A stretch of DNA of 64,000 bases from Actinophytocola algeriensis (GTDB taxonomy: Bacteria; Actinomycetota; Actinomycetes; Mycobacteriales; Pseudonocardiaceae): positions 310,001 to 374,000 of the forward strand of contig NZ_JACHJQ010000001.1 of NCBI RefSeq assembly GCF_014203735.1, in the 5' to 3' direction. Positions 6,028 to 17,000 of the stretch are shown here, piece after piece (position 1 is the first letter of the stretch; each line of letters starts with the position of its first letter). A program made the translations under genes and the position numbers. The notes below the pieces were generated by a model. The model had not been told where the DNA came from. It worked only from the letters and a program-made list of their open reading frames with translations, and did not search any database.

Positions 6028-7401
6028 ATGGCCATCATGCCGGTGACGGATTCGATGTTCCTGCTCGCCGAGTCCCGCGAGCACCCGATGCACGTCGGCG
6101 GGCTGCAGCTGTTCGAGTTGCCGGACGGCGCGGGCCCCGACTACGTCAGCGAGTTCCACCGGCAACTGCTGTCGCTTGTGGACGTCAGCCCGCTGTTCCG
6201 CCGCCGCCCGCGCGGCCCGGTCGGCAGCGTCGGCCAGTTCGCGTGGACCGGCGACGACCACCTCGACCTCGAGTACCACGTCCGGCTGTCGGGCCTGCCG
6301 CGGCCCGGCCGGGTGCGTGAGCTGCTGGAGCTGACGTCGCGGCTGCACGGCTACCTGCTCGACCGGCACCGTCCCATGTGGGAGTTCACGGTGATGGACG
6401 GCTTGCAGGGCAACCGTTTCGCCACCTACACGAAGGCGCACCACGCGCTGCTCGACGGGGTGTCGGCGCTGCGGCTGCTGCAGAGCTCCCTGTCGGAGGA
6501 CCCGTCGGACATGGCCGTCCGGCCGCCGTGGTCCCCGCGCGTGCGCACCGACGTGTTCGGCTCCGCGCCGCGCGACCGCGACCACGACTCGGCGTTCGAC
6601 CCGGTCCGCGCCGTCACCGAGCTGGCCAAGGAGGTGCGCGGTTTCGGCGCCGCCACGGTCAAGCTGGTCAACGAGGCGTTCCGCGAACAGTCGGCGACGC
6701 TGTCGTTCCAGGCCCCGAGGTCGATGTTCAACGTGCCGATCACCGGCGCCCGCCGGTTCGCCGCGCAGGGCTGGCCGCTCGACCGCATCAAGGCGGTGCT
6801 CAAGGCCACGGGCACGACCATGAACGACGTCATGCTGGCCATGTGCTCCGGCGCGCTGCGGAAGTACATGCTCGACCTGGGCACGTTGCCGGAGAAACCG
6901 CTGGTGGCGGCCATCCCGATGTCTCTGCGCACCGACAGGTCCGTTGGCGGCAACGCGATCGGCCTCATCCTGTGCGACCTGGCGACGGACCGGGCCGAGC
7001 CGCTCGACCGCCTGACGACCATCCACGAGTCGATGCTCAGGGGCAAGGCGGTGTACCACGGGATGAGCCGCCTGCAGATCACCGCGCTGTCGGCACTGCC
7101 GCTGATCCCGCTCGCCGTGGGCACGATCCCGGGGATGATCCGGATCACCCCGCCCGCGTTCAACGTGCTGATCTCGAACGTCCCCGGCCCGCGCAAGCCG
7201 CTGTACTGGAACGGCGCCCGCATGCAGGGCGTGTACCCGCTGTCGATCCCGTACGAGGGCCAGGCGCTGAACATCACGGTGACGAGCTACGCGGGCAGCC
7301 TGGAGTTCGGCCTGACCGGCTGCCGCCGCACGGTGCCGCACCTGCAACGCCTGCTGGGACTGCTGGACGAGTCGCTCGAGGAACTGGAGAAGGCCGTCTG
7401 A
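6028..7401 (+). CDS. Wax ester synthase / diacylglycerol acyltransferase (WS/DGAT)
   Basis: 457 residues, usual size for the bifunctional acyl-CoA:alcohol/diacylglycerol acyltransferases of actinobacteria. The catalytic HHxxxDG motif is present as HHALLDG at about 138-144. The C-terminal half has the family's NDVMLAMCSGALR segment, and FNVLISNVPGP near 380. A strong AGGAGG lies just upstream of the ATG. Such enzymes store excess acyl-CoA as triacylglycerol or wax ester, which fits a genome degrading lipids, but no sterol regulator box is seen here. Divergent from the glycosyltransferase. Confidence 0.9.
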   Translation: MAIMPVTDSMFLLAESREHPMHVGGLQLFELPDGAGPDYVSEFHRQLLSLVDVSPLFRRRPRGPVGSVGQFAWTGDDHLDLEYHVRLSGLPRPGRVRELLELTSRLHGYLLDRHRPMWEFTVMDGLQGNRFATYTKAHHALLDGVSALRLLQSSLSEDPSDMAVRPPWSPRVRTDVFGSAPRDRDHDSAFDPVRAVTELAKEVRGFGAATVKLVNEAFREQSATLSFQAPRSMFNVPITGARRFAAQGWPLDRIKAVLKATGTTMNDVMLAMCSGALRKYMLDLGTLPEKPLVAAIPMSLRTDRSVGGNAIGLILCDLATDRAEPLDRLTTIHESMLRGKAVYHGMSRLQITALSALPLIPLAVGTIPGMIRITPPAFNVLISNVPGPRKPLYWNGARMQGVYPLSIPYEGQALNITVTSYAGSLEFGLTGCRRTVPHLQRLLGLLDESLEELEKAV

Positions 7402-7460
7402 GGCGCTGACCGGCGGCGCGGTGCTGGACCCGTCCGGTGACGCTTCCCGCGCGGCGCGGC

Positions 7461-8120
7461 CTACCTGCCGGACTGGTACCGCGACAACCTTCCGGAGCGG
7501 TAGGCCTTCCCCGCGCGGAAGAGCGCCAGTTCGACGGCGTCGGGTGCGGCGCCGGACTCGTGTGCCCACGCGTGGGCGTGGCGCAGGTACTCGCCGTACC
7601 GCGCGCCGGTCCACCCGGTTCTCGGCCAGCCGGCCGCCAGCCCCCTGGCGACGAACCGGTCGAGGATCAGCGGCCGCGGCTCGGATCCCGTGTCGTACCC
7701 GGCGAAGTAGAGGAACTTCGTGAAGAACGCCGGGCCGAGGTAGGCGATCCGGAAGCGGGTGCGGAGCGCGTCGTACGCGGCGACCGGGCCGCTCTCCCTG
7801 AGCAGTTCGAGTGCGGCCGCCAGCCGGAAGCCGAGTGCGTTCAGCTCGTTGTGGGTGAACACCTTGGCGCGCCGGTGCACCGACTGCGCGCCCGTGCCGG
7901 CACCCCACACGCACGCGGCGACCAGCCCGCGCGTCACGTCCCCGTTGCCGCAGACCGCGAACACGGTCTCGCGGGTGACGACGTTCGCGCCGTCGAGCTC
8001 GGCCGGCCACAGCGCGCTGTCCGGGAGCAGACGCCGCCACCTCGCGGGGTCGAACCGGATGCCCTGTGCCAGCACGTCGTCTCTGCTCGGGGGAGACAAG
8101 CCGGGTGGTCTGGTGAGCAT
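7461..8120 (-). CDS. Conserved actinobacterial protein, 8-oxoguanine DNA glycosylase (OGG) fold-like
   Basis: 219 residues. It lacks a textbook signature but has IAYLGPAFFTKFLYFAGYD near 148-166, reminiscent of the helix-hairpin-helix turn of HhH-GPD glycosylases, and the conserved stretch VWGAGTGAQSVHRRAKVFTH. Actinobacterial proteins of this type are annotated as OGG-fold; I recall that label but cannot verify it here. The gene follows the RNA-repair operon in the same direction after 37 nt, so it may be its third gene. Activity on DNA or RNA is inference. Confidence 0.55.
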   Translation of the reverse strand: MLTRPPGLSPPSRDDVLAQGIRFDPARWRRLLPDSALWPAELDGANVVTRETVFAVCGNGDVTRGLVAACVWGAGTGAQSVHRRAKVFTHNELNALGFRLAAALELLRESGPVAAYDALRTRFRIAYLGPAFFTKFLYFAGYDTGSEPRPLILDRFVARGLAAGWPRTGWTGARYGEYLRHAHAWAHESGAAPDAVELALFRAGKAYRSGRLSRYQSGR

Positions 8121-8157
8121 GTCCGGGAAGTCGCCGGTGCGCGCCGGTGTGTTTCCG

Positions 8158-10797
8158 TCACGGCAGTGTCGGCACGCTGTCGGTCCGTTCCACGGTCACG
8201 CCGGGCAGTCGCCACGGTTCGGTGATCTCGGCCAGGTCGTCGGCGGTGGGCGGAGTCCGCCCCAGCCCGACAGCGAACCGGACCGGCTCCTCGGAGAACG
8301 GCCGCGGCCACGCGTGGACGTCCTCGACCCCTGCCGCTTCCAGCGACGTCAGCAAGGCCCGCACCCGGCCGCGCACCCGGCCGACGTCCTTGCCCGGCAC
8401 GGTGATCACCGCCCACGCCGCGTGCCTGCGGTGTGGTGCCACGGCGGGCAGCGGATCGCCGCCCGCCAGCACCGTCTCCCACGACGCGTACAGCTCCGTC
8501 GTCACCAGGTCCCGCATACCCGGCCCGACCTGCTCCGTGCACGACCGGACCGGTTCCGTGGGCGTCATGATCGTCATGGCGCCGGTACCTGACGCCGGTC
8601 CGGTTCGCAGCAGCACCGGTTCCCGCCAGTCCCATGCCGCCCAGCCGCCGAAGAACTCCGCGAGCAGGTCGTCGCCACCGGCTCGCACGGTCCGTGCCGC
8701 GAGGATGGCCCACGCGATCCCCGGCAACCCGCCGAACGGCGCCGAGTCCAGTCCGCGCGCCGCCGCCCACGCCTTCACGTGCCGCGCCAGCCAGGTGAAC
8801 TCCGCCCGCCGGTCGCCGACCGCGGCCAGCACCGCGTCCGCGTCGGTCACCGCACTGAGCGCCACCGCGGCACCCAGCGACGTGTCGTCGGACCTGACGA
8901 GCGTCAAGTCCACGCGTACGCCGTCCTGCCGGAACCGCAGCCCCGGCACCCGCGCTCCCACGACCGGCGTGGCGTCCGGCACCGTGACCGCCGACGGATC
9001 CGGTACCACCGCGACGAGGTCCAGGTCGGCGCCGGCCCGCGCGCAACCCATGCGCCGGGACCCCACCACGTGCACGACACCCGGTACCGACGGCATGTCA
9101 ACTTCCGCGGCGGGTGCCACCGAAGGTGCGGGTTCGGGCAGCCCCCGCACGGCGCCGGTGCCCAGTTCGACGGTTGCTCGTGGCCGCATCGGCTCGTCAC
9201 CGCGCCGGGACAGCAACACGAGCGCGCCGACGGACGCCGACATCGGCACGAGCCCGGCCGCCGCGGGTGCGGACCTGCCGACTGTCAGGTGCGGCGTGAA
9301 CCGGTCCGACTTCTGGGGGAACCGCGCCACCAACGCCCGCCACAACGCCTCCCACGGTGTCGGGTCGGCGGGGCTCAACCACGCGGTGCCCTGCGGGAAG
9401 GTCCGCACCTCGTCGAACAGCACGCCGAACGGCGCGACAGTGCGAGCGGCGTCCGACAGCAGCGGCACCGCCTCGTCGAACAACACCTCCGGCACGAACC
9501 CGAACAACAGGTTGACGTGCGGCGGCCACCGCTCACGCACCCCGCGAACCGCGTCGATCCGCGGCCACGACGACTCCGGCGGCAGCCACGCCACCGCCGT
9601 CCGCGCGGTCGACGGCATCGCGGGCACATCAGCCCGCGCCCCACGAACCCCGACCCCGTCACCACCGAACCCAGACACGAGTTGCCCCGCGGAGCCCGAC
9701 GGTTCCGCCGAGCGCGCGTTCGGGTGCGGCTCGATCGCGCCGCCGCGGTGGTCGGACGCGAGCCGCTGCGCCACCTCCGGCGGCCCCGCGTCGGGATGCA
9801 GTTCCACCGCCACGCCGTAGTGATCGGACACGAACGGTTCCTCCGTGCCCAGCAACTCCGCAGCCACCGGCCGCAGTCCGCGCACCAGCACCCGGTCCAG
9901 CCGTGCCGCCCGTCCGGTCAGCGACGAGACCGCCGCGAGCGGGTTGGCCACCGGGTCGAACGTGGGCTTCTCGTTGCCGCGCACAACCTGCCACGTGTCA
10001 ACCAGCCCGAGCCGGTCGATCGCCCCGCCGTTGAAGTCGCCCAGCAGCACCACCGGGCAGTCCAGGTTCGCCAGCCCTTCCGCGAGCCGGGCCAGCTCGG
10101 CGGCTCGGCGGCGTGGCCCCTGCGGGTGGTGATCGCTCGTCAGGTGCGTGTTCAGCACCGCGACCGGGCCGTCCCCGGTCCGCACCACCGCCGCCACGAC
10201 ACCCTTGTGCCTGCTGAGCACGTGGTGCCCGCTCTCGACGACCGGCAACCGCGTGAGCAGCAACAGCCCGCAGGCCTCGACGTCGTCACCGCCGACGACC
10301 GTGTAACCGGTCTCCGCCAGCACCATCGCGAGCAGCGGCGGCTCGACCTCCTGCAACGCGACGACGTCCGCGGCGGCCCGTGCCAGCGCCGCGAGCAGCA
10401 ACGGACGTCGGCGCGCGGTGTGGATGCGGTGGCTGTCGTACTTGTCCCACAACGTGTTCCACGTCAGCACCCGCAGCGATACCCCGGGTGCCACGGAATC
10501 CCGGACGACCGGCGTGCGCGCCGAGAAGAACGGCGCGCGCAACCGGCGCGGCTCGCGAACCCGGCCTGCCGTGGACGTGTCGATCCGGTCCACACCCGCG
10601 GCCCGGTCCCACACGACCTCGCCGTCCGCCTCGACGAACAGCACGCGGTGCCACGGGATGTCGCCGCCCGGCACGAACGTCGCCAGCGCCACCCGCTTCG
10701 GCGGCGCGCCTCGCACGAGGATCCCGAGCGTGAAGCGCGCCGGGTCGAACCGCTGGTCCCAGCGGACGCGGTGGTAGATCTGCTCACTGGTACGCAT
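8158..10797 (-). CDS. Four-domain RNA-repair protein: MJ1316/DUF504 + EEP + 2H phosphoesterase + poly(A) polymerase-like
   Basis: 879 residues with at least four nucleic-acid enzyme modules. 1-75 is an MJ1316/DUF504 domain (VRWDQRFDPARF, GGDIPWHRVLF, GEVVWDR), predicted to recognise 2',3'-cyclic RNA ends. 107-335 is an endonuclease/exonuclease/phosphatase domain: N114 (LTWNTLWD), E150 (LQE), GDFN at 253-256, SDH at 324-326. 336-398 is a low-complexity linker. 400-550 is a 2H (LigT-like) phosphoesterase with PHVNLLF (H427) and PHLTVG (H503). 575-640 is a nucleotidyltransferase (GS 579-580, DLDLVAVV with D591/D593, third Asp in VRVDLTLV). The rest resembles the helical and RRM-like parts of poly(A) polymerases. 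The ATG at 10797 overlaps the RNA ligase stop (ATGA). Joint action on broken RNA ends is inferred. Confidence 0.85.
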   Translation of the reverse strand: MRTSEQIYHRVRWDQRFDPARFTLGILVRGAPPKRVALATFVPGGDIPWHRVLFVEADGEVVWDRAAGVDRIDTSTAGRVREPRRLRAPFFSARTPVVRDSVAPGVSLRVLTWNTLWDKYDSHRIHTARRRPLLLAALARAAADVVALQEVEPPLLAMVLAETGYTVVGGDDVEACGLLLLTRLPVVESGHHVLSRHKGVVAAVVRTGDGPVAVLNTHLTSDHHPQGPRRRAAELARLAEGLANLDCPVVLLGDFNGGAIDRLGLVDTWQVVRGNEKPTFDPVANPLAAVSSLTGRAARLDRVLVRGLRPVAAELLGTEEPFVSDHYGVAVELHPDAGPPEVAQRLASDHRGGAIEPHPNARSAEPSGSAGQLVSGFGGDGVGVRGARADVPAMPSTARTAVAWLPPESSWPRIDAVRGVRERWPPHVNLLFGFVPEVLFDEAVPLLSDAARTVAPFGVLFDEVRTFPQGTAWLSPADPTPWEALWRALVARFPQKSDRFTPHLTVGRSAPAAAGLVPMSASVGALVLLSRRGDEPMRPRATVELGTGAVRGLPEPAPSVAPAAEVDMPSVPGVVHVVGSRRMGCARAGADLDLVAVVPDPSAVTVPDATPVVGARVPGLRFRQDGVRVDLTLVRSDDTSLGAAVALSAVTDADAVLAAVGDRRAEFTWLARHVKAWAAARGLDSAPFGGLPGIAWAILAARTVRAGGDDLLAEFFGGWAAWDWREPVLLRTGPASGTGAMTIMTPTEPVRSCTEQVGPGMRDLVTTELYASWETVLAGGDPLPAVAPHRRHAAWAVITVPGKDVGRVRGRVRALLTSLEAAGVEDVHAWPRPFSEEPVRFAVGLGRTPPTADDLAEITEPWRLPGVTVERTDSVPTLP

Positions 10798-12401
10798 CAG
10801 CCCACCGCCACGTCGTCGATCGTGCCGCCCGCACCGACGTACCAGGTGCGGTGCGCCTCCCCGGGGTAGGGCGGCGCGAACCGCCGGAACTGCGCGGCAA
10901 CCACGTCCGCGGGCACCGGGTGGCGCCGCGCCGCGTTGCGTCGGGCGGCCAGGTCCTCGCCGACGACCAGCACGGCGTGTGTGACGAGCGCGTCCCGGCC
11001 CGCCGCGACGGTCGCCACCACCGACCGCTGGTGCCGGTTGATCGCGGTGGCGTCCCACACGACGGTGCCGCCCCGGGCCAGTGCCTTGTCCAGCCGCTCA
11101 AGCCCTTCCCGCAGCACGTTCGCGTGCTCGCCGGTGCGCAACCCGTCGAGCGACACGACGTCGTCCGCGTCCACAGTGGACGTGAAGGTGCTCTTGCCGC
11201 TGCCTGCGGGGCCGACCATGACGACCAGTCGCGGGAACTCGCCGGACCGCCACCGCCAGGTCGCGGCCTCCGCTTCGGCCGGGGTGTGCAGGCGTCCCGT
11301 CGCGAAGGCCTCGCGGGCTTCGGACCAGCACCGGTCCCGCACGTCGACGTCCTGGTAGGGCAACGCGGCACGCAGAGGCAGCAGCGGGTCCTCGCCCATG
11401 AGCCCGGCTTCCTCGGCGACGAGCGCGGACCACTCCACCGCGGCCGACTCGCCCGCGACCGCGTGCAGCACGCCGAGGTCGGCGGCGACGGCGAGCCGGA
11501 TGAGCCCCGCGCGACGTTCGTCGTCGGGGAAGTCCTCGCGCAGCAGGGGAGCCAACCCGACGAGGTCCGCGACGCGGCGGGCGAGCCGCATCCCGAGCGG
11601 CGCCACGAGGCGCGGCATGAGCCACGTCCGGGGCTTGTCCCGCAACAGGGTGGCGAGCACCCCGGTGAGCCGGGCGTCACCGGTGCGGTCGAACTCCGCG
11701 AGATCCGTGACCGCGCTGGTCATCCCGACCGCGTGCAGCACGGCGGGCACGTCGACGGGAAAGCCCGCCCGCACGTCCCACAGCGCGGCGTCCGGCCCGC
11801 GGCCGTTCACGACGACCGGCGCCTGCATCCAGTGCGTGCTGGTCTGGACGTGCCCTCGGCGCACCCACTTCGCGACGTGGCCGGGGAAGTCGGCACGGGA
11901 GAACCCCGCCACCGTGCGCACGACGAAGCCTTCCTGCCGCGTGAGGTCGAGCCGCAGCGCCCGCAGCGCGCGTTCGTCGAACACGCCGCGCCACAGGACC
12001 GGCGGCACCGGGACACCGAGCCGCCGCGCGAAGGCGACGGTGTCGTCCCAGCCGAGGCAGCGGTCCCCGTCCCACACGGAGAACGCGTAGAACCAGCTCG
12101 ACAGGTCGTCATAGGGCAGCGAGTGCCGGGCGAACACGTTCTCGCCGCACACCCGCACACCCGGCGGGATCGCCAAGCGGCTCTGCAACGACTTCACCCA
12201 GGCGCGCGACGGGTGGTGGCCGGAGTCGAGTGACCGGGCGTGCAGCCCGTCGCGGTAGAGGGTGGTGTTCTCCCCGTCGAGCTTCTCGGTGACCACGACC
12301 TCGCGCCCGAGGAAGCCGGACAGGTCGGCGACCCGCACGTCGTCGGCCGAAACACCGGGAGACCACGGCAGGTGCGGCGTGCGGGGATAGTGCACCCGCA
12401 T
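10797..12401 (-). CDS. RNA ligase fused to polynucleotide-kinase-like P-loop domain
   Basis: 534 residues; ATG at 12401 with a strong GGGGAGG 6 nt upstream. The N-terminal half is an ATP-dependent RNA ligase: motif I EKLDGEN with adenylated Lys40, a motif III-like FYAFSVWDG near 104, motif IV EGFVVR at 157-162 and a motif V Lys near 178 (AKWVRRGHV). After a helical middle region, 391-534 is a kinase: Walker A GPAGSGKST (397-405), SLDGLR, and WDATAINRHQR near 449-459 as in polynucleotide kinases. One chain could thus phosphorylate a 5'-OH and seal the nick. It is the first gene of the operon with the four-domain protein. A frame continues further 5' but is not needed. Confidence 0.88.
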   Translation of the reverse strand: MRVHYPRTPHLPWSPGVSADDVRVADLSGFLGREVVVTEKLDGENTTLYRDGLHARSLDSGHHPSRAWVKSLQSRLAIPPGVRVCGENVFARHSLPYDDLSSWFYAFSVWDGDRCLGWDDTVAFARRLGVPVPPVLWRGVFDERALRALRLDLTRQEGFVVRTVAGFSRADFPGHVAKWVRRGHVQTSTHWMQAPVVVNGRGPDAALWDVRAGFPVDVPAVLHAVGMTSAVTDLAEFDRTGDARLTGVLATLLRDKPRTWLMPRLVAPLGMRLARRVADLVGLAPLLREDFPDDERRAGLIRLAVAADLGVLHAVAGESAAVEWSALVAEEAGLMGEDPLLPLRAALPYQDVDVRDRCWSEAREAFATGRLHTPAEAEAATWRWRSGEFPRLVVMVGPAGSGKSTFTSTVDADDVVSLDGLRTGEHANVLREGLERLDKALARGGTVVWDATAINRHQRSVVATVAAGRDALVTHAVLVVGEDLAARRNAARRHPVPADVVAAQFRRFAPPYPGEAHRTWYVGAGGTIDDVAVG

Positions 12402-12410
12402 GACTGACCT

Positions 12411-12545
12411 CCCCCGGTAGTTGTCCACAGCCCACCCAGTTGTCCACAGTTGGATCAACGCGCCTTGTTTTCTCGCCCACAACTGGTAGACTGGCAAGGC
12501 GGGACGCCGCCGGCGTTCGGGTGGGGGTTGGGTACCGGCGGATTT
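12411..12545 (-). repeat. Dispersed ~120-bp intergenic repeat, copy A, with two DnaA-box-like 9-mers
   Basis: On the minus strand this matches 33551-33680 over about 120 bp. The most conserved block is 23 nt (12482-12504, one mismatch or none against 33590-33612). Two TTGTCCACA 9-mers (12421-12429 and 12440-12448) are spaced 19 bp, as in copy B. TTGTCCACA is the actinobacterial DnaA-box consensus. The element occupies the 193-bp gap between ipdC and the RNA ligase gene and could hold that operon's promoter; nothing else is seen in the gap. Confidence 0.75.
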
Positions 12546-12594
12546 GCGGATCTTGGTGTCAACGTAGAGGCGTTCGTGCGCGCTGGGCCAGCCA

Positions 12595-13638
12595 TTAACG
12601 CGGCAGGCGGGCGATCACGTCCTCGGCCTCGGTGACGATGCGGGTGATCAGCTCCGCGCACGTCGGCAGGTCGGTCAGCGCGCCGACCACCTGACCGGAC
12701 GCCAGCACCCCGGCGTCCGTGTTGCCCTTCACCAGGCCTTCGCGCAGCAGCATCGGTGTGTTCGCGGCCATGACCAGTTGTGACCACGTCAGCTTGCGGG
12801 TGCGCCGCATCGTGAGACCCTCGCGCACCACCGAACGCCACGAGAGCCCGGTCATCCTGCGGAAGCGGTTCGCGTTGCGAACCGCGCGTGCGAGGCCGGT
12901 CGCGCGGTTCGCCTTTTCCAGACCTGACACGAGTTCGGTACGCAGGACGCGGTGGGGCACACCGTCGACCGCTGTCGTCACCACCGTGTCCGACAGACCG
13001 CGTGTCAGGTACGCCTCCTTGACCGCGCGCGGCACCGTGCTCTCCTCGGTCAGCAGGAACCGGGTGCCCATCGCGACCCCGGCCGCGCCGTACGCGAGCG
13101 CGGCCGCCAGCCCGCGACCGTCGTAGAAGCCACCGGCCGCGATCACCGGGATGTCCACGGCGTCCACGACGGACGGCAGGAGGATCGTCGTCGCGACCTG
13201 ACCGGTGTGACCGCCGCCCTCGCCGCCCTGCACCACCACGGCGTCCGCGCCCCGCGCGGCCACCTTCTCCGCGTGCCGCACCGCGCCCACCGACGGGATC
13301 ACCACCACGCCGGCGTCCTTGAGCGTCTCGATCAACGCCTGCGACGGGGCCAGCGCGAACGACGCCACCTTGACCCGCGTCTCGATCAGCAGCCGCACCC
13401 GGTCGGCCGCGTCCACCGCGTCCGCCCGCAGGTTCACGCCGAACGGCTGGTCGGTCCGTTCCCGGACCTCGTCGATGGCGGCCCGCAGCTCGTCGAAAGT
13501 CATGGTCGCGGACGCGAGGATGCCCAGCCCGCCCGCGTTCGCCACCGCCGACACCAGCCGCGGCCCGGCGACCCAGCCCATCCCGGTCTGCACCACCGGG
13601 TGCCTGACACCCGTCAGCTTCGTGAGCGCGGTGTCCAT
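12595..13638 (-). CDS. ipdC: IpdC, flavin NPD-type oxidoreductase of C/D-ring degradation
   Basis: 347 residues of the 2-nitropropane dioxygenase/nitronate monooxygenase fold (FMN TIM barrel): PVVQTGMGWVAGPRLVSAVA at the N-terminus, VQGGEGGGHTGQV near 140, and the phosphate-binding VIAAGGFYDGRGLAAAL near 175. ATG at 13638 overlaps the ipdB stop (ATGA). Fifth gene of fadA5-echA20-ipdA-ipdB-ipdC; M. tuberculosis has the same ipdA-ipdB-ipdC order (Rv3551-Rv3553). IpdC introduces a double bond into the hydroxy-indanone CoA intermediate before ring D is hydrolysed. Called by synteny plus fold; the fold alone would not distinguish it from other NPD proteins. Confidence 0.85.
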   Translation of the reverse strand: MDTALTKLTGVRHPVVQTGMGWVAGPRLVSAVANAGGLGILASATMTFDELRAAIDEVRERTDQPFGVNLRADAVDAADRVRLLIETRVKVASFALAPSQALIETLKDAGVVVIPSVGAVRHAEKVAARGADAVVVQGGEGGGHTGQVATTILLPSVVDAVDIPVIAAGGFYDGRGLAAALAYGAAGVAMGTRFLLTEESTVPRAVKEAYLTRGLSDTVVTTAVDGVPHRVLRTELVSGLEKANRATGLARAVRNANRFRRMTGLSWRSVVREGLTMRRTRKLTWSQLVMAANTPMLLREGLVKGNTDAGVLASGQVVGALTDLPTCAELITRIVTEAEDVIARLPR

Positions 13639-14315
13639 CACCGGGCCGGGTCCAGCTCGCGGAGGACCGCCAGCTCCTCGGCGGTCGGCTCGCGGGTCAC
13701 CGGCGGGTCGTCGATGGCCAGCGGGAACCCGGTCTGCTCGACGACCTCGTCGACGGTCACGCCCTGGTGCACGGACACCACGCGCATCGCGTGGCCGGGA
13801 CCGCCGAAGTCGAGCACGCACAGGTTCGTGACGACCCGGTACACGTCGTGGAACGGCCCGCCGTCCCGGTCGTAGCCCACACCTGACACCACGTCGACCG
13901 CGGGCACGAACACGCGCGGCGAGTGCTTCGGCACCCAGTAGCTCGTGCGGTGGTTGACGGTGTTGCCCGGCGCCCCACGTACGCCCAGCAGCTGACGCTT
14001 GGGAGCCTGGTGCGGGCCGATGCAGGAGATGTTCTGGTTGCCGTACCGGTCGATCTGGTTCGCGCCCATCACCACGTGCCTGCGCCCGTGTGCGACCACG
14101 TCGAACACCGCGCGGTACGGCAGCCAGCCCTCCGGTTGCCCGTCCGCGGTGAGCAACGTCGCCTCGCCGTCCGACAGCACGAGGTCCGGCTCGAACGTCC
14201 GCCGCGCGAGCCGCGCGCCCAGCGACGGGACCGGCCCCATCGGACTCGCCAGGATCTCGCCGTCGCCGCGGAACAGCTCGGCGCAGGCCACCACGCACAC
14301 GTCCATGCGACTCAT
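13638..14315 (-). CDS. ipdB: IpdB, beta subunit of the C-ring-opening CoA-transferase-like hydrolase
   Basis: 225 residues, CoA-transferase family I fold. Very similar to M. tuberculosis IpdB: VCVVACAELFRGDGEI, GRRHVVMGANQIDRYGNQNI, GVRGAPGNTVNHRTSYWV, VVSGVGYDRDGG and FDFGGPGHAMR. ATG at 14315 overlaps the ipdA stop; a longer frame upstream lies inside ipdA and was not used. IpdA and IpdB form the heterodimer (IpdAB) that hydrolytically opens ring C of COCHEA-CoA rather than transferring CoA. It lacks about 25 residues of the mycobacterial C-terminus. Confidence 0.92.
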   Translation of the reverse strand: MSRMDVCVVACAELFRGDGEILASPMGPVPSLGARLARRTFEPDLVLSDGEATLLTADGQPEGWLPYRAVFDVVAHGRRHVVMGANQIDRYGNQNISCIGPHQAPKRQLLGVRGAPGNTVNHRTSYWVPKHSPRVFVPAVDVVSGVGYDRDGGPFHDVYRVVTNLCVLDFGGPGHAMRVVSVHQGVTVDEVVEQTGFPLAIDDPPVTREPTAEELAVLRELDPAR

Positions 14316-15130
14316 GCGACCGCCTTCTGGTAAGCGGCTTCGTCGCCGGACAGGTACCGGTCGGCGAAGGACTCCCACTCGCCCTCGGCGTAGGTCTCCT
14401 GGAACTTCTCGTCCCGGCCGTAGTCCGGCACGCAGCTCGTGAAGTGCGCGCCGTGCGGGGTCGCCACCACGCCGTCGACCATCATCCGGTTCAGCAGCAA
14501 CGTCTGCGGCGGCCCGCCGTCGGCGATGTCGTCCACAATGGACTCGCACGAAACATAACGCTTGTCAGCCGCGAGGCAGAACAGGTCGTCGAAGTACGGG
14601 TCCGGCCCGAGGTAGCGCGCGTTGCCCCGCCGGTCGGCGCGGTTGAGGTGCACGAGCGCGACGTCCAGGTGCAGTGCGGGCATCGCGACCAGCTCCTCGC
14701 CGTCCTCGTACGGCGACCGCACGGTCCGCAGCGACGGGTCGTTCGTGAGCACGTCCGAGCCGAGCCCGGCGCGGATCGGCAGGAACGGCAACCGGTGCGC
14801 CGCCGCGCGGAGCCCGGTCTGGAGCATGCCCTCGTCGAACTCCCGCACCTCGATGGCGCCGGACTCGCGGGCCCTGCGGAAGTACGGGTCGTACGGGATC
14901 GAGTCCAGCGACACGAACCCGTACACCGCCTTGCGCACCTTCCCCGCCGCGCACAGCAAACCCAGGTCCGGCCCGCCGTAGCTGACGACCGTCAGGTCCT
15001 TCAGGCCGGACCGCAGGATCGCGCGCACCAGCGCCATCGGCTTGCGCCGCGACCCCCACCCGCCGATCCCGATGGTCATCCCGTCGGACAGCGTGGACAC
15101 CACCTCGTCGGCAGTCATCCGCTTGTCCAT
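14312..15130 (-). CDS. ipdA: IpdA, alpha subunit of the C-ring-opening CoA-transferase-like hydrolase
   Basis: 272 residues, family I CoA-transferase alpha fold with the N-terminal glycine loop DGMTIGIGGWGSRRKPMALV. The conserved YGGPDLGLLCAAGKVRKAVY and the acidic FDEGMLQTGLRAAAHRLPFLP lie mid-protein, and a possible catalytic-region Glu is in RYVSCESIVDD. The start codon abuts the echA20 stop with no gap, and the 3' end overlaps ipdB by 4 nt, as expected for subunits made in a fixed ratio. Partner of IpdB in ring C hydrolysis. Confidence 0.92.
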   Translation of the reverse strand: MDKRMTADEVVSTLSDGMTIGIGGWGSRRKPMALVRAILRSGLKDLTVVSYGGPDLGLLCAAGKVRKAVYGFVSLDSIPYDPYFRRARESGAIEVREFDEGMLQTGLRAAAHRLPFLPIRAGLGSDVLTNDPSLRTVRSPYEDGEELVAMPALHLDVALVHLNRADRRGNARYLGPDPYFDDLFCLAADKRYVSCESIVDDIADGGPPQTLLLNRMMVDGVVATPHGAHFTSCVPDYGRDEKFQETYAEGEWESFADRYLSGDEAAYQKAVA

Positions 15131-15871
15131 CTACTTCCCTTCCCCGAACGTGTTCCTGACCTCGTCCGCCACGCCGGTCAGGTTCAGCTCGAACGTGAAA
15201 CCCTGCTCGTACCGGTAGCTGCGGTGCACGTCCTGCGGGTCGATCCCGTTGAGCGCCTTCTTCGCCGCCCGGATCACGCGCGGGTCCTTCGCCGCGATCT
15301 GCTTCGCGACCTCCAGGGCCGCGCCCGCCAGGTCGTCCGGCGGCACCACCCGGTACACCGACCCGAAGTGGTGCAGCTGCGCCGCGGTCACCGTCGACGC
15401 CGTGTAGTACATCGCGCGCATCAGGTGTTGCGGCACCAGCCGGGCCAGATGGGTGGCCGCGCCGAGCGCTCCTCTGTCCACTTCGGGCAGTCCGAACGTC
15501 GCGTCGTCCGCGGCCACGACCACGTCCGCGTTGCCGACCAGCCCGACGCCGCCGCCGAGGCAGAAGCCCTGCACGGCCGCGATCACCGGTACCTGACAGT
15601 CGTAAACCGCGCCGAACGCCGCGTGACAGCCGTGGTTCGCGCCGACCAGCGCCTCGTGCCCGTCGCGCTGGATCTCCTTGATGTCCACGCCGGCGCAGAA
15701 CCCGCGCCCGGCGGCACGCAGCACCACGACGTGCGTGTCCGGGTCGCGGCCCGCCGCGGTGACCGCGTCCGCGAGCGCGAACCAGCCTGCGACCGGCAGC
15801 GCGTTGACCGGCGGGTGATCGATCGTCACCACGACCACGCCCGGCTCGGCGGTCCCGGTCGAGACGCTCAT
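15131..15871 (-). CDS. echA20: EchA20, D-ring-opening crotonase
   Basis: 246 residues. The start chosen is the ATG at 15871, one base after the fadA5 stop; further upstream codons lie inside fadA5. It aligns along its length with M. tuberculosis EchA20: TIDHPPVNALPVAGWFALAD, GRGFCAGVDIKEIQ (oxyanion hole), CHAAFGAVYDCQVPVIAAVQ, DATFGLPEVDRGALGAATHL, and the C-terminal YEQGFTFELNLTGVAD. EchA20 is a crotonase-fold enzyme that hydrolyses ring D of the HIEC-CoA intermediate, feeding IpdAB, whose genes follow directly. Confidence 0.93.
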   Translation of the reverse strand: MSVSTGTAEPGVVVVTIDHPPVNALPVAGWFALADAVTAAGRDPDTHVVVLRAAGRGFCAGVDIKEIQRDGHEALVGANHGCHAAFGAVYDCQVPVIAAVQGFCLGGGVGLVGNADVVVAADDATFGLPEVDRGALGAATHLARLVPQHLMRAMYYTASTVTAAQLHHFGSVYRVVPPDDLAGAALEVAKQIAAKDPRVIRAAKKALNGIDPQDVHRSYRYEQGFTFELNLTGVADEVRNTFGEGK

Positions 15872-15872
15872 G

Positions 15873-17000
<1,128 letters not shown>

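What the first reader, a model, noticed from the sequence alone, without database searches (positions are those of the whole stretch)
8158..12401. Two-gene RNA-repair operon: ligase-kinase fusion coupled to a four-domain end-processing protein
Seen: an RNA ligase-P-loop kinase gene (10797-12401) overlaps by ATGA with an 879-residue gene combining MJ1316/DUF504, EEP nuclease, 2H phosphoesterase and poly(A)-polymerase-like domains. Together they have the parts to recognise a cyclic-phosphate end, trim or open it, phosphorylate the other end, add nucleotides and seal. Known: RNA ligases, PNK, 2H and MJ1316 domains have been linked to RNA repair by comparative genomics. Inference: this is a self-contained RNA-damage-repair system, perhaps answering ribotoxins or tRNA-cleaving effectors. 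I know of no direct experimental study of this exact architecture.
Basis: partly seen in the sequence, partly recalled or inferred. Interest (0 to 1): 0.88.

Follow-up and report, generated by a model that had tools for sequence, protein, structure and literature searches.

The report
Two-gene bacterial RNA repair operon
An actinobacterium carries two adjoining genes that together have the parts to tidy the ends of broken RNA, add letters back and seal the break; the same pair recurs in many related bacteria, so it looks like a real but still untested RNA-repair kit.

Summary
Observation confirmed, with small corrections. Window 10797-12401(-) encodes ligase-[middle domain]-kinase (534 aa); 8158-10797(-) encodes MJ1316-EEP-2H-PAP (879 aa). 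They share one base (TGATG, not ATGA). The named domains pass Pfam cut-offs and catalytic residues are conserved in aligned long relatives (46 and 49 rows).

The pair is a near-strict unit. In 394 Actinomycetes-class genomes the ligase occurs in 17, all 17 with the partner (one broken copy). In 71 of 73 loci the genes lie -14 to +19 bases apart. Three related Streptomyces keep the partner without the ligase, and there the nucleotidyltransferase DxD has become DxN.

New here: the ligase-kinase resembles a fusion of the Deinococcus DRB0100/DRB0098 type whose predicted HD phosphatase has lost its motif, so the partner would supply 3'-end healing. A cyanobacterial plasmid has the four-domain partner without a ligase.

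Best model: 2H/EEP make a 3'-OH, PAP refills, kinase and ligase seal. A Trl1-like route with KptA is a rival; 4 of 27 pair-bearing genomes lack KptA. Burroughs & Aravind 2016, unread here, may already list the architecture.

The parts
10797..12401 (-). RNA ligase - middle domain (HD-phosphatase relic?) - P-loop polynucleotide kinase, 534 aa
   Evidence: K40, E87, E157, K178 (ligase) and G397, G400, G402, K403, S404, D419, R422, D450, R488 (kinase) identical in 46 of 46 aligned relatives
11787..12401 (-). ligase nucleotidyltransferase domain (aa 1-205), of the stand-alone minimal ligase family of D. radiodurans DRB0100 and large phages
   Evidence: 60.6% identity to D. radiodurans over aa 1-200; 34 phage records; 95 of 138 viral stretches encode relatives, 80 kept; Pfam PF09414
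11232..11801 (-). middle domain (aa 201-390); aligns with the HD domain plus linker of DRB0098-like proteins but has no HD motif
   Evidence: hhalign probability 96.4%, 175 columns; 41.2% for aa 201-345 against the full template, 7.2% against the HD core alone; no Pfam hit; best PDB profile hit E 1.4
10812..11240 (-). P-loop kinase domain (aa 388-530)
   Evidence: PF13671; residues; aligns with the DRB0098 kinase domain
8158..10797 (-). MJ1316 - EEP - 2H - poly(A)-polymerase-like nucleotidyltransferase, 879 aa
10603..10797 (-). MJ1316 domain (aa 1-65)
   Evidence: PF04457, 62.0 bits; the 15 positions listed are identical in 49 of 49, but were picked from the invariant list
9778..10485 (-). EEP metal-dependent phosphoesterase domain (aa 105-340)
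   Evidence: PF03372; N114, E150, H218, D254, N256, D325, H326 in 49 of 49; best PDB relative TDP2, E 5.7e-9
9118..9615 (-). 2H phosphoesterase domain (aa 395-560)
   Evidence: PF13563; both histidines in 45 of 45 that have the domain; domain absent from 4 of 49
8170..9090 (-). poly(A)-polymerase-like nucleotidyltransferase, central domain and C-terminal region (aa 570-876)
   Evidence: poly(A) polymerase gamma, E 5.7e-10; C-terminal region also matches poly(A) polymerases, E 3.3e-7; G579, S580, D591 in 49 of 49, D593 in 47, D630 in 48

Best explanation
The two genes encode an RNA end-healing and sealing machine. Shown by sequence: an ATP-dependent ligase of the DRB0100 type fused to a 5'-kinase, overlapping by one base with a gene for an MJ1316 end-binding domain, an EEP phosphoesterase, a 2H cyclic phosphodiesterase and a poly(A)-polymerase-like nucleotidyltransferase, with catalytic residues intact. 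Inferred: a metal-independent RNase leaves a 2',3'-cyclic phosphate and a 5'-OH. MJ1316 grips the cyclic end; 2H and EEP open and remove the phosphate (or EEP trims the blocked nucleotide) to leave a 3'-OH; the nucleotidyltransferase can restore lost 3' nucleotides; the kinase phosphorylates the 5'-OH; the ligase joins the ends. Evolutionary reading: the ligase-kinase descends from a DRB0100-DRB0098-like system whose HD phosphatase decayed inside the fusion, and the EEP/2H protein took over 3'-end healing.
For: Domains over Pfam cut-offs; catalytic residues conserved. Co-occurrence: ligase in 17 of 394 class genomes, all 17 with the partner (G378 a broken copy), and every partner that reaches beyond MJ1316/2H is with a ligase in that sample (Fisher p 4e-30, ignoring phylogeny). 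Spacing -14 to +19 bases in 71 of 73 loci, 36 of them a one-base overlap. Distances correlate (r 0.84, 45 loci, 0 of 999 permutations). Damaged copies have both genes partial (G378, G518, G534). In the three related Streptomyces without the ligase, the nucleotidyltransferase DxD is DxN in all three, and one also lost D630, while the other 47 aligned partners keep these acids: ligase and nucleotidyltransferase seem to be kept together. Deinococcus keeps ligase and HD-kinase as separate neighbouring genes, and the window's middle plus linker aligns to that HD-linker at 96.4% without the HD motif. No other phosphatase domain was detected in either protein. EEP and nucleotidyltransferase domains are present in all 49 aligned partners, 2H in 45. 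An EEP enzyme, ANGEL2, is a 2',3'-cyclic phosphatase (PMC9525292, passages read).
Against: No activity shown. DRB0100 forms ligase-AMP but sealed neither DNA nor RNA in vitro (PMC1997131), and its disruption had no radiation phenotype (PMC1978522), so this ligase family may not be a simple RNA ligase. The HD phosphatase of DRB0098 is itself only predicted: H81A and D82E did not reduce the 3'-phosphatase activity seen, which may be contamination (PMC1997131). The EEP profile is nearer TDP2 (E 5.7e-9) than ANGEL2 (E 0.093). The HD relic rests largely on the linker: against the HD core alone it falls to 7.2% (30 shuffles at most 0.6%). The ligase-less Streptomyces and the Calothrix plasmid show the partner can exist alone or with something else. 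One aligned partner (L043) has neither 2H Ser/Thr. Broken and short copies were left out before the 46- and 49-row counts.
Confidence: 0.6

Rival explanations
1. Trl1-like pathway: 2H opens the cyclic phosphate to a 2'-phosphate that stays on; kinase and ligase seal with a 2'-phosphate at the junction; the genome's KptA/Tpt1 removes it using NAD+. EEP and nucleotidyltransferase would trim and refill.
For: Parts match fungal Trl1 (ligase, kinase, 2H; recalled). No dedicated phosphatase domain detected. KptA (PF01885) is in 20 of 23 pair-bearing genomes against 13 of 98 in a class sample (which overlaps the first set), and in the window's own genome. Within the family it is in 15 of 16 partner-bearing genomes and 89 of 184 others (one-sided Fisher p 2.9e-4).
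Against: By genus the association is not significant (4 of 5 against 22 of 41, p 0.27). Streptomyces with only the short gene (6) or with no ligase (3) all have KptA (9 of 9). Four of 27 pair-bearing genomes examined lack KptA (G241, G354, G422; G594); two of these four, G422 and G594, also lack the partner's 2H domain. KptA lies about 450 kb from the pair in the window's genome. Four of 49 aligned partners lack 2H, although other 2H proteins are encoded elsewhere.
Confidence: 0.17
2. DNA rather than RNA end repair: ligase, PNK and a TDP2-like EEP acting on damaged DNA ends.
For: EEP profile nearest TDP2; ligase profile hits a solved 'DNA ligase', 3qwu, at E 1.9e-4; a putative 8-oxoguanine glycosylase gene lies 37 bases downstream; the DRB0100 operon is induced by irradiation and DRB0098 phosphorylates a DNA 5' end (PMC1997131).
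Against: MJ1316, 2H and PAP-type domains are known as RNA-end families (Pfam names, PMC6514570 passages; partly recalled); the glycosylase is not next to the pair in the close relative Actinophytocola oryzae.
Confidence: 0.1
3. RNA processing or tailing rather than repair, for example circularising or polyadenylating a dedicated host or viral RNA.
For: Eukaryote-type poly(A) polymerase domain; partner exists without ligase.
Against: Ligase and kinase come with the partner in nearly all loci; patchy distribution (17 of 394 genomes) does not suit housekeeping; no Rfam family at gathering score in 7000-13500.
Confidence: 0.13

Closest known systems
Deinococcus radiodurans DRB0100-DRB0099-DRB0098 operon (ligase, PARG-like, HD phosphatase-kinase)
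   Same: Ligase domain 60.6% identical over aa 1-200; kinase and linker related; ligase upstream of kinase
   Different: Three genes, not a fusion; HD domain detected (50.1 bits) and a PARG-like gene between; no four-domain partner in Deinococcus plasmid records (Deinococcus chromosomes not searched)
Calothrix brevissima NIES-22 plasmid protein (AP018209.1)
   Same: Same four domains in the same order, with the EEP, 2H and nucleotidyltransferase catalytic residues kept
   Different: 27.7% identity over 80% of the query; some MJ1316 positions differ (H9, E56, D58); no ligase-kinase relative on the 208 kb plasmid
Fungal/plant tRNA ligase Trl1 (recalled) with Tpt1
   Same: Ligase, P-loop kinase and 2H parts
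   Different: 2H is in the partner protein; extra MJ1316, EEP and PAP; 2'-phosphate requirement unknown; KptA not always present
Bacterial Pnkp-Hen1 / Pnkp1-Rnl-Hen1 RNA repair (PMC4411300, search listing and start of abstract only)
   Same: Kinase plus RNA ligase healing and sealing logic
   Different: Not Pnkp by NCBIfam (32.7 bits against cut-off 750); no metallophosphatase or methyltransferase family in the two proteins
MJ1316-containing RNA-repair proteins surveyed by Burroughs and Aravind 2016 (doi 10.1093/nar/gkw722; not held; seen only as cited in PMC6514570 passages)
   Same: MJ1316 fused to RNA-repair domains
   Different: Whether this exact pair is listed there could not be checked

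Membership tests
ATP-dependent RNA ligase (PF09414) | profile score over cut-off and active-site lysine | tested here: met
   109.8 bits, cut-off 27; K40 in 46 of 46
ATP-dependent RNA ligase (PF09414) | seals RNA | not testable with these tools
   DRB0100, a relative, did not seal DNA or RNA in vitro (PMC1997131, passages)
MJ1316 domain (PF04457) | profile score over cut-off | tested here: met
   62.0 bits, cut-off 26.3
2H phosphoesterase (PF13563) | profile and two H-x-S/T motifs | tested here: inconclusive
   78.9 bits, cut-off 27; second motif HLT, first HVN; both histidines in 45 of 45 that have the domain
EEP superfamily (PF03372) | profile and metal/catalytic residues | tested here: met
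   66.2 bits, cut-off 24.5; N, E, H, D, N, D, H in 49 of 49 (residue roles recalled)
PAP-type nucleotidyltransferase | GS motif, three acidic residues, PAP central domain | tested here: met
   GS and D591 in 49 of 49, D593 47, D630 48 (exceptions are two ligase-less rows); PAP_central 35.1 bits
HD-phosphatase kinase (DRB0098 type) | HD metal-binding motif | tested here: not met
   No HD Pfam hit (DRB0098 scores 50.1 bits); window reads LLRDKP at the aligned place
HD-phosphatase kinase (DRB0098 type) | common descent of the middle domain | tested here: inconclusive
   96.4% with the linker, 41.2% for aa 201-345 against the full template, 7.2% against the HD core alone
Bacterial Pnkp (TIGR04075) | equivalog cut-off 750 bits | tested here: not met
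   32.7 bits, kinase part only
Trl1-like tRNA ligase | ligase-kinase-2H in one protein | tested here: not met
   2H lies in the partner
Trl1-like tRNA ligase | 2'-phosphate required for sealing | not testable with these tools
   needs biochemistry
Known anti-phage defence system (PADLOC) | model match | tested here: not met
   only a weak P-loop hit, E 0.0076

The most novel reading that the evidence does not exclude
The pair is a bacterial Trl1-like sealing system that leaves a 2'-phosphate at the repaired junction, and in actinobacteria it is a natural source of substrate for KptA, whose role in bacteria is called a longstanding conundrum (PMC6333775, passages read). The HD phosphatase of the ancestral Deinococcus-like system was then discarded because the 2'-phosphate is kept, not removed, until after sealing.
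Probability: 0.13. Interest if true: 0.82.

Novelty: new variant of a known kind. Interest (0 to 1): 0.52.

Why it matters
If right, it is a compact RNA-repair kit that can rebuild damaged 3' ends before sealing, and it shows how one system's phosphatase can decay while a second protein takes over. It makes three questions testable: why the induced D. radiodurans ligase DRB0100 shows no sealing activity (a missing healing partner?), what EEP and PAP domains do in bacterial RNA repair, and whether bacterial KptA acts after such a ligase.

Tried and rejected
Obligate 2'-phosphate/KptA route: tested by KptA presence. The raw association (15 of 16 against 89 of 184) was not significant at genus level and 4 of 27 pair-bearing genomes lack KptA. 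The 27 are the 23 plus G591-G594; G593's partner is apparently frameshifted.

HD relic by the HD core alone: weak (7.2%). Of 11 HD-kinase ORFs found, six were dropped from the template (L242, L243, L244, L245, L220 had no match to my P-loop pattern, L215 was too short) and five were used.

8-oxoguanine glycosylase as an operon member: seen beside the pair only in the window (rows). Seven of the 84 sources gave no row because my gene caller missed the partner; their ligase and partner were then found by tblastn.

Phage or plasmid origin: the partner had no match in 50,697 phage records. A viral-contig scan with two short peptide patterns found none. Of 8 plasmid records with a match, 3 cover at least 80% by the tool's count, all replicons of 3 Mb or more; the Calothrix plasmid covers about 80%. 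Structure prediction and fold search: not available.

Literature: MJ1316 appears in 2 papers of the library. Search listings showed no study of this pair; the key survey (gkw722) is not held.

Selection before counts: the 46 and 49 rows were hand-picked from 54 ligases over 500 aa and 63 partners over 700 aa, each made non-redundant at about 85% identity. So broken and short copies (for example L046, L113, L114) were left out, and L102 was not picked. Some genomes occur twice among the loci (for example L036 and L054).
Full report
What is there. Two genes on the minus strand, 12401 to 10797 and 10797 to 8158, share one base at TGATG. The first product (534 aa) carries RNA_ligase (aa 33-180) and AAA_33 kinase (392-511); the second (879 aa) carries MJ1316 (1-65), EEP (111-326), 2H (406-531) and a poly(A)-polymerase-like nucleotidyltransferase (PAP_central 667-732). 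193 bases separate the pair from the upstream gene, which ends at 12595. A putative 8-oxoguanine glycosylase gene starts 37 bases downstream, but in the rows it is seen only in the window.

Conservation of active sites. In 46 aligned ligase-kinases K40, D42, G43, E44, N45, E87, E157 and K178 of the ligase and G397, G400, G402, K403, S404, D419, R422, D450 and R488 of the kinase are identical. In 49 partners the EEP set (N114, E150, H218, D254, N256, D325, H326), G579, S580 and D591 are identical; D593 is kept in 47 and D630 in 48; both 2H histidines are present in the 45 that have the domain. Which residues are catalytic is recalled from the families. The rows were picked from non-redundant lists of long proteins (54 and 63), so broken copies are not in these counts.

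The pair is a near-strict unit. Among 394 genomes of the class, 17 have the ligase at E 1e-15. The partner search finds 23: these 17 (G378 a broken copy), plus six (G173, G252, G317, G356, G385, G392) whose matches cover only MJ1316 and/or 2H, some with stops inside. Two short genes of this kind were typed as MJ1316 plus 2H (L048, L050). In the window's family 16 of 200 have the partner. Of the 15 other than the window's genome, 14 have a ligase match, two of them fragments (G518, G534); G549 has none. Of 63 named loci, 57 carry the ligase upstream (three of these cut by a contig end), one has fragments (L114), two are cut before it (L092, L113), and three (L068, L083, L096; Streptomyces ISL-96, ISL-100, ISL-98) have no ligase-domain match in their draft genomes (one has a kinase-only match at E 1.8e-7). 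Gene spacing is -14 to +19 bases in 71 of 73 loci, with 50 and 112 in the other two; some genomes occur twice. Distances of the two proteins correlate at r 0.84 over 45 loci, which shows shared history, not interaction.

Partner without ligase. In the three ligase-less Streptomyces the nucleotidyltransferase motif DxD reads DxN, and L083 also lost D630; the other 47 aligned partners keep the acids. The three are close relatives, so this may be one event. It suggests that the nucleotidyltransferase is not kept once the ligase is gone, while EEP and 2H histidines remain.

Domain loss. Four of 49 aligned partners (L040, L100, L101, L110) lack 2H but keep the other domains. L102 lacks it too and appears frameshifted; G422 lacks it by its match pattern. 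The genome of L040 (G363) has a separate MJ1316-2H gene. All 12 genomes tested encode further 2H proteins, so 2H function may be supplied in trans.

Origin of the ligase-kinase. The ligase domain is 60.6% identical to D. radiodurans DRB0100 over aa 1-200 (locus). Relatives covering about aa 1-200 occur in 34 phage records and in 95 of 138 viral stretches. In Deinococcus the neighbouring enzyme is an HD domain plus kinase. The window's stretch 201-388 aligns with the HD-plus-linker of five such proteins at 96.4% probability over 175 columns. For aa 201-345 it falls to 41.2% against the full template and 7.2% against the HD core (P 0.005; 30 column shuffles give at most 0.6%, reversed 0.1%). The HD motif is absent in the window (LLRDKP at the aligned place) and no HD family is detected. 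I read this as a decayed phosphatase, with moderate confidence.

The partner beyond actinobacteria. A conjugative plasmid of the cyanobacterium Calothrix brevissima encodes the same four domains over cut-off, with the EEP, 2H and nucleotidyltransferase residues kept, and no ligase-kinase relative on the plasmid. No partner relative was found in phage records or in a viral-contig scan with two short patterns.

Nearest solved structures by sequence: EEP to TDP2 (E 5.7e-9), ANGEL2 only at 0.093; nucleotidyltransferase to poly(A) polymerase gamma (5.7e-10), its C-terminal region also to poly(A) polymerases (3.3e-7); 2H to 2d4g and 1iuh; ligase to 3qwu (1.9e-4) and Naegleria RNA ligase (0.32); no convincing hit for the middle domain (best E 1.4).

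Mechanism. A T4-type ligase needs a 5'-phosphate and a 3'-OH (established knowledge). The kinase gives the first. With HD gone, EEP and 2H are the only candidates in the pair for the second. 2H enzymes open a 2',3'-cyclic phosphate to a 2'-phosphate (PMC9503650, passages read), and an EEP enzyme, ANGEL2, hydrolyses such ends (PMC9525292, passages read). The constant presence of EEP and nucleotidyltransferase suggests trim-and-refill or full dephosphorylation as the core step, with 2H accessory. The rival keeps the 2'-phosphate until after sealing and then uses KptA. KptA is in 23 of 27 pair-bearing genomes examined, but this follows genus and four genomes do without; two of those four (G422, G594) also lack the partner's 2H.

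What is known. DRB0100 is adenylated but sealed nothing in vitro; DRB0098 is a 5' kinase whose HD phosphatase activity remained unproven (PMC1997131, passages). Disruption of DRB0100 had no radiation phenotype (PMC1978522, passages). A 2025 paper discusses that operon's PARG in reversal of RNA ADP-ribosylation (PMC11833690, passages). PMC6514570 (passages) cites Burroughs and Aravind 2016 for MJ1316 as a reader of 2',3'-cyclic ends fused to repair domains. That survey is not held, and from memory I think it may describe a similar actinobacterial architecture, so I do not claim first sight of the domain combination. What I add is the near-strict pairing, the domain-loss pattern, the DxN change without the ligase, the HD-relic hypothesis, the cyanobacterial relative and the KptA test.

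Limits. Eukaryotes and most other phyla could not be searched. Everything about activity is inferred.

Noticed in passing
window 7461-8120 (-): Putative 8-oxoguanine DNA glycosylase-like gene (PF21790, 182 bits) starts 37 bases downstream of the pair, same strand; not next to the pair in A. oryzae (L052).
   Followed up: partly
L048-L051: Short genes (about 270-305 aa) starting like the partner, without ligase beside them; two were typed as MJ1316 plus 2H. L049-L051 lie near the same ribosomal-protein-like genes as some full pairs, suggesting remnants or a split-off module.
   Followed up: partly
L039, L040, L055, L057, L059, L065, L073, L075 and others: In many Streptomyces the pair sits divergently beside what look like S10-operon ribosomal genes (L3, L4, S10 recognised by eye): clusters c3, c4 and c7 each lie within six genes in 18 of the 77 rows.
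   Followed up: no
L068, L083, L096: Three related Streptomyces keep an open full-length partner gene (954-987 aa) without a ligase; their nucleotidyltransferase DxD reads DxN.
   Followed up: partly
window 14312-15913 (-) and neighbours: Upstream CoA-transferase and enoyl-CoA hydratase genes; the five gene clusters upstream of the pair are shared with Actinophytocola oryzae.
   Followed up: no
L156 8630-9487: D. radiodurans has a microbial PARG gene (PF10021) between ligase and HD-kinase; the three other Deinococcus plasmids fetched (L158, L240, L241) lack it there.
   Followed up: no
L043 partner: 2H motifs changed to HVP and a Val in place of the second Ser/Thr, a possibly inactive 2H in an otherwise intact pair.
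   Followed up: no
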